Source: an uncultured Porphyromonadaceae bacterium
GTDB taxonomy: Bacteria > Bacteroidota > Bacteroidia > Bacteroidales > Muribaculaceae
DNA length: 57,320 nt
Direction: 5' to 3'
NCBI GenBank assembly: GCA_947573485.1
Contig: CANPGB010000021.1
Coordinates: forward strand, 1-57,320
The notes under the pieces are model-generated. The model was not told the DNA's origin, did no database searches, and worked only from the letters and a program-made list of their open reading frames with translations. Numbering within the stretch: the first letter of the stretch is position 1; every line of letters begins with the position of its first letter. This document shows, piece after piece, positions 1-2,038 of this stretch. A program made the translations under genes and the position numbers.

Positions 1-89
1 TAGTTACTGGAAAAGTTCACCGCCTCTGTCTTTCTTATTAACAATTCAGAGTGTAATTGTTAACTCTTAATCTCGTCTGCAAAGGTAAA

Positions 90-121
90 AGTTACTGGCT
101 TAATCAGCGTCTTTCAGACGC
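90..121 (+). repeat. Fragment of palindromic intergenic repeat family
   Basis: The sequence GTTACTGG-C-TTAATCAGCG followed by the hairpin GCGTCT-TTC-AGACGC matches the right end of the larger elements at 25107-25320 and 51287-51528, which read GTTACTGGTTAATCAGCG or similar followed by GCGTCC/GGACGC-type hairpins. Only this end is present, so it is a truncated or solo copy. Confidence 0.55.
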
Positions 122-146
122 ATTTATACCTCTGTAGCCCCTTTAA

Positions 147-199
147 CTCCCCCGGAGGGGGTCATAGCTCGTTAACCGGGGGTGCAGCCCCCGGAACAG
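147..199 (+). repeat. Palindromic repeat, left copy flanking abi
   Basis: Consists of a C5GGAG5-type palindrome (147-161), a spacer ending in ATAGCTCGTTAACC, and a GGGGG-TGCA-CCCCC hairpin. The reverse complement of the first two parts, with one indel and a base change, occurs at 1201-1231, so the abi gene lies between inverted copies. Confidence 0.6.
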
Positions 200-348
200 C
201 CCACAAAGCCAATGCGTGGAGGTGCGGTACAACAATTTCCGCGCCATTCCCGGCATTAAATATAATTACACACATTGGTCGTACCTTCAAAGCCACGTTT
301 TCCAGAACATGGTTATTCGGCTATTCCCATTGGTATAGGCTTGACAAC

Positions 349-1017
349 TTATATATTTGAGATCTTCTCAAAAATGGAATACGGACATATTCCTGTCCCC
401 CAAAATAATCGCTTGTGGTCATATCCAAGGAAATGCACATATTTCTTAATAAGTTCGAGATTGGCTTTACAATATGACAGATCGACCTCTCCATTTATAT
501 TAAAACAGATAGCCTCGTGATGAGCAATCCGATTTCTGAATGACTTGATTTCTTGTAGCTCATTAAAAATTGGGCGTTGAGCCAATCCGTGTGTCCTGTT
601 CGGAAATATCTGTAATAATGTGTTTCCTCCTCCGCGATAAGGTAATCTATTAAAAAGGTAAGTCCAGAAGCCAAACGTCACGGAGGACACAAGACGGTCA
701 TTAGAATATCTGCCATGCCGTCTTAGTTCAGTGGCAGTCCTCATTATCTCGTGACATTGAGGGGCTGAAGAAAGCATACATCCTTCAGCACACTGATTGA
801 TAATCCAATCGTTGTCAGCGAAATGTGTTTGATAATGGCAATTTATTGCATTACGAAGTACTACCTCAAAGACATTGAGAATACCATAAAACTTTTGACA
901 AAGTTTTACGTTCTGCCTATAGAGCGTCAAGGCCTTGGTCTTATTGCCTCCACATGCCGCCAAATATCGGTTCAGCCTTGCCGGCGAAAAAGCATTTTCG
1001 TAGTCTTCGTAATTCAT
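349..1017 (-). CDS. Abi_2 / AbiF-like HEPN-domain protein
   Basis: A 222-residue cytoplasmic protein of the Abi_2 (AbiD/AbiF-like) group, whose members act in abortive infection against phages. Visible features are an N-terminal helical part with FEVVLRNAINCH (about residues 50-61) and a C-terminal KSFRNRIAHHEAIC segment. R161-N-R-I-A-H166 fits the R-x4-6-H signature of HEPN ribonucleases, so an RNA-cleaving toxin activity is the family-based expectation. It starts at an ATG with a TAATTTTG -7 box about 28 bases upstream (complement of 1045-1052). The gene is AT-richer than its surroundings: a hand count of 361-420 gives 25 G+C of 60, against about 40 of 60 in gltX. It lies between inverted palindromic repeats and beside a divergent structured RNA candidate. 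No protein antitoxin adjoins it. The family call is fairly sure; the activity is inferred. Confidence 0.8.
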   Translation of the reverse strand: MNYEDYENAFSPARLNRYLAACGGNKTKALTLYRQNVKLCQKFYGILNVFEVVLRNAINCHYQTHFADNDWIINQCAEGCMLSSAPQCHEIMRTATELRRHGRYSNDRLVSSVTFGFWTYLFNRLPYRGGGNTLLQIFPNRTHGLAQRPIFNELQEIKSFRNRIAHHEAICFNINGEVDLSYCKANLELIKKYVHFLGYDHKRLFWGTGICPYSIFEKISNI

Positions 1018-1040
1018 TTGCGAAATTTAACTTGTTCAGA

Positions 1041-1072
1041 TTTGCAAAATTACAAAAAAATACTTAACTTTG
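1041..1072 (+). promoter_or_regulatory. Promoter for a small RNA, divergent from abi
   Basis: TTTG at 1041-1044, a 20-base spacer and TAACTTTG at 1065-1072 match the Bacteroidetes consensus exactly. It points away from abi toward a region with no plus-strand gene, so the expected transcript begins near 1079. The abi -7 box lies within it on the other strand, so the two promoters overlap and may compete. Confidence 0.7.
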
Positions 1073-1078
1073 TAACGG

Positions 1079-1173
1079 AATCCCCCGAGTGTCCCTGTTG
1101 AAAGACAAACCTCGGGGTTTAGTTTTTACCCCGATAGCCATTGATAAAGTCCAGCTATTGGGGTTTGTTTTTG
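1079..1173 (+). ncRNA. Candidate structured small RNA with two tandem hairpin units
   Basis: Downstream of a consensus promoter lie two consecutive units of about 45 bases. Unit 1 (1083-1128) pairs CCCCGAG with CTCGGGG, with an inner TGTC/GACA pairing, and ends in TTTAGTTTTT. Unit 2 (1129-1173) pairs CCCCGATAGC with GCTATTGGGG (one wobble) and ends in TTTGTTTTT. Both loops carry TTGA followed by AAAG. The units therefore look like diverged tandem repeats, each ending like an intrinsic terminator. No reading frame is present. The location beside an Abi_2/HEPN gene suggests an RNA antitoxin or guide-like partner, but that is inference; a leaderless terminator pair is the dull alternative. Confidence 0.55.
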
Positions 1174-1184
1174 ATGATTTCCAC

Positions 1185-1232
1185 GGGCGGCAAGCGCCCG
1201 CGGTTAACGAGCTATTCCCCCTCCGGGGGAGG
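1185..1232 (-). repeat. Palindromic repeat, right copy flanking abi
   Basis: Holds a GGGCG/CGCCC hairpin (1185-1200), then CGGTTAACGAGCTAT and a CCCCCTCCGGGGGAG palindrome. The last two parts are the reverse complement of 147-177, so this is an inverted partner of the left copy. Confidence 0.6.
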
Positions 1233-1285
1233 CGTGGCTTGTACCGCGTTCATCTACACGTGGCTTACTTCCCTACTATCGCTTT

Positions 1286-2038
1286 TCACCCCTCGCACTC
1301 CTGCTTTATGTAGTGGTGGGCGGCGGTGCACTCGTGCAGGGTGCGGTCGACTATTATATGGCGGTTGGCCATGCCTGCTATGGCCGACATCTCGTGGCTC
1401 ACCAGGAGCACGGTGGTGTGTGTGGCGAGGTCGGCGATAATGCGGTAGAGGCGCTCCTCGAAGTGCTTGTCGATGTAGCTCAGGGGCTCATCGAGGACGA
1501 GCACGGGCGGGCGACTCACTATGGCGCGGCCGAAGAGCACACGCTGCAGCTGACCACCCGAGAGGCGACCTATGGGGCGCGACGCCAGGTCTTCGAGGTC
1601 GATAAGCCGCAGAGCCTCGGCTACGCGGGCGGCTTTTTCGTCGGCAGGCATGCTGCGGTAGGCCAGGAGCCCCGACATCACCACCTCGCCTACGGTAATG
1701 GGGAAGTGGGCGTCGACGCTGTTTTTCTGCGGCAGGTAGCCGAAGGGCGGTGGCGTGGCAGTAGGCTTGCCGTCGGCACCGTAGAAGCGGAGGCTGCCCT
1801 GCGTGGGTTTGAGCAGGCGCAGTATGATGCGTAGCAGCGTTGTCTTGCCTCCGCCGTTGGGGCCGGTAATTGCCATAAAGTCGCCCCGGTCAACCGTAAG
1901 GTTCACATTATCGAGCACAATGCGGTCGTCGCGACGGAAACTGAGGTCGCAGAGCGAGAGCAATGGCGTGCGACCGGCGTCGTGGTGGTGGTCGCAGGCC
2001 GAGCAGCGGCAAGTAGCGTTATGGCCGGGAGAGTTCAT
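1286..2038 (-). CDS. znuC: Metal ABC transporter ATP-binding protein (ZnuC-like)
   Basis: ATPase subunit of a zinc/manganese importer, 250 residues from the chosen ATG. Walker A GPNGGGKTT, ABC signature LSGGQLQR, Walker B VLVLDEPLS and the switch histidine in VSHE are all intact. An earlier in-frame ATG exists at 2077, but starting at 2038 leaves a 20-base overlap with znuA, typical of translational coupling. The N-terminus before the ATPase fold is unusual: CRCSAC followed by DHHHD, a Cys/His cluster that could bind metal. The adjacent substrate-binding lipoprotein supports the role. No permease gene follows; downstream is the abi patch. Metal specificity cannot be read from the sequence. 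Confidence 0.88.
   Translation of the reverse strand: MNSPGHNATCRCSACDHHHDAGRTPLLSLCDLSFRRDDRIVLDNVNLTVDRGDFMAITGPNGGGKTTLLRIILRLLKPTQGSLRFYGADGKPTATPPPFGYLPQKNSVDAHFPITVGEVVMSGLLAYRSMPADEKAARVAEALRLIDLEDLASRPIGRLSGGQLQRVLFGRAIVSRPPVLVLDEPLSYIDKHFEERLYRIIADLATHTTVLLVSHEMSAIAGMANRHIIVDRTLHECTAAHHYIKQECEG

What the first reader, a model, noticed from the sequence alone, without database searches (positions are those of the whole stretch)
349..1173. Abi_2/HEPN gene beside a divergent two-unit structured RNA
A consensus promoter (1041-1072) drives a short RNA with no reading frame, made of two units of about 45 bases that share pairing ends (CCCCGA...GGGG), loop bases (TTGA, AAAG) and terminator-like tails. 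Tandem structured units next to an RNase-like toxin gene are what type III toxin-antitoxin RNAs look like, and recent work has reported AbiF-type HEPN proteins paired with noncoding RNA and linked to the origin of Cas13. Here the overlapping divergent promoters and the flanking repeats would make a compact mobile defence unit.
Basis: partly seen in the sequence, partly recalled or inferred. Interest (0 to 1): 0.82.

Follow-up and report, generated by a model that had tools for sequence, protein, structure and literature searches.

The report
HEPN toxin-like gene with guard RNA
A gut-bacterium gene that looks like an RNA-cutting abortive-infection toxin sits back-to-back with a conserved 50-base hairpin RNA that probably keeps it in check, and similar hairpins turn up in phage sequences without such a gene, where they may disarm it.

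Summary
The pairing is real. The gene at 349-1017(-) is a 222-aa Abi_2 protein with an invariant HEPN-type motif (R161/H166). Divergent from it, under a Bacteroides-type promoter, lies a ~50-nt self-terminating hairpin RNA (1079-1127). It accompanies 33 of 34 Bacteroidota-type relatives fetched, covaries strongly, and in five of these lies 3' of the gene instead, so it probably acts in trans. It matches no Rfam family, abiF (RF03085) included.

The second unit (1128-1173) is at best a diverged copy; most relatives have one unit. The flanking 'mobile' repeats belong to a dispersed repeat.

Beyond the window, Bacteroidales Abi_2 genes carry three RNA classes that track protein clades (26 of 26 loci in 393 genomes, one judged by eye). 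Class I and II hairpins also occur in phage contigs without a detectable abi gene, partly inside tRNA arrays and four times close together. This suggests RNA antitoxin mimicry.

Best reading: an AbiF-like toxin/RNA-antitoxin pair with a divergent single-hairpin RNA, a new variant of a known kind. Transcription, toxicity and neutralisation are untested; phage mimicry is inference, and remnants or terminators remain possible.

The parts
349..1017 (-). Abi_2-family (AbiD/F-like) protein, 222 aa, probable HEPN ribonuclease toxin
   Evidence: PF07751 26.1 bits; PADLOC PD-T4-5 39 bits and AbiD 16.4 bits; 33-sequence alignment
520..537 (-). RNRIAH motif (R161 to H166), HEPN R-x4-H type
   Evidence: R161, N162 and H166 invariant in the 33 aligned proteins
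1041..1072 (+). promoter of the RNA: TTTG, 20 nt, TAACTTTG
   Evidence: sequence; TAnnTTTG just upstream in 54 of 55 gene-linked copies
1079..1127 (+). unit 1: conserved class I hairpin RNA with its own U-run terminator; start inferred from the promoter
   Evidence: model R1 59.8 bits; covariation; fold
1093..1096 (+). CCCU side of the conserved internal loop, the proposed protein contact (inference)
   Evidence: CCCU with only single-letter exceptions in the aligned rows apart from the misaligned L190
1100..1103 (+). GAAA tetraloop (GNRA type)
   Evidence: fold; GNRA or UNCG type in many relatives
1128..1173 (+). unit 2: terminator-like hairpin, probable diverged second copy
   Evidence: 9.6 bits; L002 counterpart 15.5 bits; fold

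Best explanation
A two-part toxin/RNA-antitoxin defence module of AbiF-like type. The Abi_2 protein is a HEPN ribonuclease (inferred). The divergent ~50-nt RNA folds into one hairpin whose conserved internal loop (CCCU opposite A-A or A-U), between a basal stem and a tetraloop-capped apical stem, binds the protein and holds it inactive (inferred). With its own promoter and terminator the RNA is made independently of the toxin gene and works in trans (inferred). Infection that lowers or disturbs the RNA would free the toxin (inferred). Shown here: conserved linkage, covarying structure, promoter and terminator signals, invariance of the motif, RNA class and protein clade going together, and RNA retained beside several broken toxin genes. 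Not shown: transcription, toxicity, neutralisation, anti-phage effect.
For: RNA beside 33 of 34 Bacteroidota-type relatives, in three relative positions. Covariation: 92.7% of cells paired, best slid version 45.5%, 75 double-changed cells against 23.5 +/- 3.9 shuffled. 54 of 55 gene-linked copies have TAnnTTTG upstream, 53 of 55 a T-run. 26 of 26 Abi_2 loci in 393 order genomes have an RNA of one of three classes, and 9 of 10 newly fetched genus loci do. Class I and class II proteins are each one clade. Broken genes L035, L041, L047, L230 and L232 keep the RNA. The family's studied member is an RNA-neutralised toxin (PMC12373285, abstract and parts of the text).
Against: No expression, toxicity or binding data. 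The Pfam match is only just over the cut-off and the profile meets the solved AbiF (8vz6) only at E 0.024. RF03085 is not matched. The RNA also occurs without the gene. L033, a gene fragment, and the Actinomycetota relatives L036-L040 have no class I RNA. Structure prediction did not finish.
Confidence: 0.74

Rival explanations
1. The RNA is a cofactor, guide or phage sensor needed for the HEPN enzyme's activity (a Cas13-crRNA-like role) rather than an antitoxin.
For: The family is described as the stock of Cas13, whose HEPN enzyme works with a structured RNA (PMC12373285 and PMC12737573, passages). Constant RNA-gene linkage fits either role.
Against: No variable guide part: the RNA is one hairpin plus a short tail. 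RNAs persist without the gene and beside broken genes, as expected of an antitoxin. Studied AbiF members are neutralised by their RNA (PMC12373285).
Confidence: 0.15
2. The hairpin is only a transcription terminator or intergenic punctuation.
For: Stem plus U-run is a terminator shape (53 of 55 copies). In the order scan 17 loci hit by the model look like ordinary terminators.
Against: A promoter lies directly in front of it (54 of 55). The loop is conserved far beyond terminator needs while the stems covary. 9 of 18 phage copies lack the T-run yet keep the loop.
Confidence: 0.04
3. The toxin-free copies in phages and genomes are neutral remnants, local terminators or parts of abi modules outside the fragment, not counter-defence decoys.
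For: 9 of 18 phage copies keep a T-run. 10 of 16 class I phage places have no tRNA match nearby by ARAGORN or Rfam, the latter run on only some of the loci. The two nearest named huge phages lack a clear class I copy (0 matches; 20.3 bits). Contigs may be fragments, and their hosts are unknown. L123 carries RNA and abi gene together.
Against: Stem sequences differ between contigs while internal loop and tetraloops persist. Class I and II hairpins lie within about 210 nt in four contexts. No Abi_2 gene in 22 of 23 records.
Confidence: 0.4

Closest known systems
AbiF with RCd22 in C. difficile (PMC12373285; abstract, two result sections and part 1 of the discussion read)
   Same: Abi_2 protein with an RNxxxH HEPN motif beside a small structured RNA that neutralises it there; two RNA motifs in RCd22
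   Different: There the RNA lies upstream on the same strand, is partly co-transcribed with the gene and matches RF03085; here it is divergent and unmatched by RF03085, and model R1 does not match the phiC2 abiF RNA (best 5.4 bits)
PbAbiF with its RNA, PDB 8vz6 (described in PMC12373285 and PMC12737573, passages; primary paper not seen)
   Same: HEPN protein of the Abi family with a bound RNA antitoxin; the profile aligns over residues 70-220
Type III toxin-antitoxin systems such as ToxIN, and pseudo-ToxI of phage PhiTE (PMC3475682, abstract and outline seen)
   Same: RNA neutralises an endoribonuclease; a phage can carry an RNA mimic
   Different: There the antitoxin is a repeat array; here one divergent hairpin and an unrelated protein family
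abiF sRNA of cyanophage S-CREM1 (PMC9964418, five passages seen)
   Same: An Abi-type RNA in a lytic phage genome
   Different: RF03085 type; the passages propose no decoy role and no set of classes

Membership tests
Abi_2 protein family (PF07751) | score above the curated cut-off | tested here: met
   26.1 against 25.6 bits, a narrow pass
HEPN ribonucleases | conserved R-x4-6-H motif | tested here: met
   R161/H166 invariant in 33 aligned proteins
HEPN ribonucleases | four-helix HEPN fold | tested here: inconclusive
   structure job accepted but not finished; sequence match to 8vz6 only E 0.024
abiF RNA (Rfam RF03085) | covariance-model match | tested here: not met
   no match at E up to 10 in window 900-1300 nor at E up to 5 in ten loci; the model does find the phiC2 RNA
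AbiF operon as studied in C. difficile | RNA upstream on the same strand as the gene | tested here: not met
   divergent in the window; of 33 relatives 28 divergent, 4 convergent 3', 1 downstream on the same strand
Type III TA (ToxIN-like) | tandem-repeat RNA antitoxin preceding the toxin gene | tested here: not met
   one hairpin plus a weak second unit, divergent
Type III TA (ToxIN-like) | toxin of the ToxN family | tested here: not met
   Pfam scan at E up to 1 lists only Abi_2 and a sub-cut-off UxuA
Toxin with RNA antitoxin (functional class) | toxicity neutralised by the RNA | not testable with these tools
   needs expression and binding assays
Cas13 systems | repeat-spacer array beside the gene | tested here: not met
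   no such array among repeats of window 1-1400

The most novel reading that the evidence does not exclude
Phages, several on contigs over 100 kb, carry small hairpin RNAs, often within or next to tRNA clusters, that mimic the RNA antitoxins of different Abi_2 HEPN subfamilies (class I and class II close together; class III in a tRNA array): a multi-target RNA counter-defence. The bacterial module in the window belongs to the system they target.
Probability: 0.5. Interest if true: 0.88.

Novelty: new variant of a known kind. Interest (0 to 1): 0.68.

Why it matters
It extends RNA-partnered HEPN toxins, the proposed stock of Cas13, to a clade found across Bacteroidota with mostly divergent, single-hairpin RNAs, and shows three RNA classes matched to protein clades, a natural set for studying how HEPN-RNA specificity evolves. 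If the phage copies are decoys, phage tRNA arrays double as anti-defence RNA arrays, and a simple RNA scan would predict which Abi_2 defences a phage can escape. Both claims are directly testable in laboratory strains.

Tried and rejected
Rejected: a module bounded by its own inverted repeats (dispersed repeat). Rejected: membership in RF03085. Rejected: order-scan hits without the loop motif as real copies: 17 loci (L053-L058, L060-L070) read by eye as ordinary terminators. L059 (29.8 bits, GCCGCUG, among phage-like genes) was left undecided and not counted; five further rows had no locus and were not looked at.

Led nowhere: the two named huge phages nearest to some tRNA-array contigs (LR756500, LR745206) show no clear class I copy (0 matches; one of 20.3 bits) and no Abi_2. 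Lactococcal phage sk1, cited as holding a region that protects phage 712 from AbiF (title seen in two reference lists), has no RF03085 match. Host assignment of five phage contigs gave distant or no matches. Literature searches (open-access PMC only) listed no paper that I could see reporting these RNA classes or such phage arrays, but I opened only six papers, and the primary Cas13-origin paper was not seen.

Dropped before counts: L036-L040 (Actinomycetota) are outside the 34; genus rows G445, G449 and G454 had no locus and were not examined; class II phage places were chosen by eye from the scored list (18 of 59 contigs, 13 distinct places), ambiguous rows left out.

Full report
WHAT IS THERE. 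The gene at 349-1017 (minus strand) encodes 222 aa matching Pfam Abi_2 (26.1 bits, cut-off 25.6) and the PADLOC models PD-T4-5 (39 bits) and AbiD (16.4 bits). R161, N162 and H166 are invariant in the 33 aligned proteins. On the other strand 1041-1072 has the Bacteroides promoter form (TTTG, 20 nt, TAnnTTTG; consensus recalled). The stretch 1076-1174 folds at -34.2 kcal/mol against -21.75 +/- 3.29 for shuffles. Unit 1 (1079-1127) and unit 2 (1128-1174) each fold better than their shuffles.

THE RNA IS A CONSERVED PARTNER. A scan of bacterial genomes gave 39 related loci. Of the 34 that are Bacteroidota-type (L002-L035; L002 is titled Lachnospiraceae), 33 carry the RNA: 32 read, and L035 found by the model. 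The miss is L033, a gene fragment. The RNA is upstream and divergent in 28, 3' and convergent in 4 (L024, L025, L026, L028), and downstream on the same strand in 1 (L035). L030 has a second copy on the other side of the gene. Changing position while staying linked argues for a trans-acting RNA rather than a leader (inference). The five Actinomycetota relatives (L036-L040) have no class I RNA.

STRUCTURE. Two alignments made without structure, 33 sequences and a broader 39 with subtypes, phage copies and plasmids, support one hairpin: a basal stem of up to 9 pairs, an internal loop of 5' CCCU opposite A-A or A-U, and an apical stem that in many members ends in a GNRA or UNCG-type loop. On the 33: 86.5% of cells paired, best slid version 50.7%. 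On the 39: 92.7%, best slid version 45.5%, 7 of 11 pairs with double changes, 75 double-changed cells against 23.5 +/- 3.9 shuffled. The pair next to the loop is U-A in 26 rows, C-G in 12 and unpaired in 1. The 39 were picked by me, partly with the motif, which favours the core but not the variable stem. L190 is misaligned and was kept. Of 55 gene-linked copies in 54 loci given, 54 have TAnnTTTG just upstream, 49 also a TTG at the right distance, and 53 a T-run.

UNIT 2. It scores 9.6 bits. The counterpart in the closest relative, L002, scores 15.5 bits and keeps CCCUG...CAAGC, the loop of the GC subtype. It is best read as a second copy that has lost the loop in this genome; it may serve as a terminator.

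A SET OF RNAS MATCHED TO PROTEIN CLADES. In 393 genomes of the order, 21 have an Abi_2 gene found by the profile: 28 rows, 26 separate loci. Each has an RNA of one of three designs nearby: 24 by pattern, 1 by a looser pattern, 1 by eye at the edge of a printed flank. Class I 8; class II (AAGCCUCU...GUAA) 4; class III (UUCCUCUCCC...UGAUGAA) 14, one of them decayed. Classes II and III were defined on these loci, so this is description, not a blind test. A fresher test is the genus scan (15 of 49 genomes): of 10 newly fetched loci, 8 carry class I by the model built earlier and 1 class III by pattern; the tenth begins 5 nt from a contig end. In a tree of 69 proteins the 43 class I and the 4 class II proteins are each one clade (100/97 and 100/96). 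The 14 class III proteins are not, because a plasmid protein labelled 'other' nests among them; its flank then matched the class III pattern. Class II shares AAGCCUCU with the RF03085 consensus printed, so the classes may form one superfamily (inference).

RNA WITHOUT TOXIN. The order scan gave RNA matches in 33 of 393 genomes. By sequence, 12 carry the loop motif: 7 beside an Abi_2 gene (L041's is truncated; L047's has a stop inside) and 5 with none within the fetched flank nor by profile in the genome (L052 has only 137 nt on one side). Viral contig L139 carries two RNAs like the pair flanking the gene in L030, with no abi gene between them or in the record. Gene-broken loci L035, L230 and L232 keep the RNA. 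An antitoxin could leave such traces (inference).

PHAGE COPIES. Pattern scans of viral contigs gave 74 (GUCCCUG type), 22 (GCCCCUG type) and, for a scrambled core, 16 contigs. Features outside the pattern separate real from chance: CCC in register in 10 of 74, 4 of 22 and 0 of 16; a paired apical stem with GNRA/UNCG loop in 12 of 74, 4 of 22 and 0 of 16 (near-identical contigs are counted singly). The scrambled core contains a CpG, gave fewer hits and is an imperfect control. With two further scans and L282 I count 17 distinct phage contexts without an abi gene found, plus L123 with one. Whole-record searches found no Abi_2 in 20 of 21 records (PF07751) and 22 of 23 (profile A2); records may be fragments.

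MORE THAN ONE CLASS IN PHAGES. A class II scan gave 59 contigs; 18, in 13 distinct places, show both helices by my reading, and no Abi_2 was found in one locus fetched for each place. Four contexts (L122, L213, L214, L282) hold class I and class II within about 210 nt. By ARAGORN 4 of 16 class I, 8 of 13 class II and 1 of 3 class III places lie within 300 nt of a tRNA. L214 also has an Rfam tRNA match between its hairpins, and L213 two just under the gathering score. A class III scan gave 9 contigs, 5 with an abi gene or part of one. Of 18 class I phage copies only 4 have the promoter and 9 a T-run, so many look like parts of larger transcripts kept for their loop (inference).

MECHANISM. By analogy with AbiF-RCd22, where the protein is toxic and the RNA binds and neutralises it (PMC12373285: abstract, two result sections and part of the discussion read), I propose a HEPN RNase held by a dedicated hairpin RNA. 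The phage copies would be decoys, as shown for pseudo-ToxI against ToxIN (PMC3475682, abstract). Against this: no experiment; frequent orphans; unknown hosts of the phage contigs; nearest named huge phages without a clear copy; no RF03085 in phage sk1; only 4 of 16 class I places near an ARAGORN tRNA.

MOBILITY. The inverted repeats around the module belong to a dispersed repeat (21 matches). The gene is patchy (15 of 49 genomes in the genus) and lies on plasmids of Phocaeicola, Riemerella, Hymenobacter and Chryseobacterium with the RNA beside it, so it does move, but there is no sign that it moves by these repeats.

VERDICT. It is a new variant of the AbiF kind. The larger surprise, outside the window, is the set of phage-borne hairpins, whose decoy role is a testable inference.

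Noticed in passing
L211 647-2002; L216 7034-7551; L083 10376-10568; L213 4617-4925; L214 1690-1915; L122 12381-12640: Phage tRNA arrays or tRNA neighbourhoods holding Abi_2-type hairpins, some with two classes close together.
   Followed up: partly
L100 10363-12108; L211 4500-6140: TROVE/Ro60-like genes next to the tandem class I units (L100, my reading of the protein) and inside the tRNA array (L211; one named match is annotated TROVE). A link to the RNAs is unknown.
   Followed up: no
L214 3190-3605: A GOLLD RNA (288 bits) in the same phage contig as a class I and a class II hairpin.
   Followed up: no
L175, L176, L179, upstream of the abi gene: Another conserved divergent stretch (GTCGA...TGGCCCCACTGGC...TCGAC) in viral contigs, perhaps a fourth RNA class (by eye).
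   Followed up: no
L036-L038, upstream of the abi gene: Actinomycetota Abi_2 relatives share a different divergent hairpin ending in a T-run (by eye).
   Followed up: no
L190 2422-3630: The Riemerella plasmid copy of the module lies next to an IS4351-like transposase and a predicted ermF gene; described only.
   Followed up: no
window 147-185 and 1178-1231: Members of a dispersed palindromic repeat with 21 matches in this genome.
   Followed up: partly
L043, L044, L048, L050, L052: Toxin-free class I RNAs in genomes of the order, 3 of 5 with the promoter motif.
   Followed up: partly
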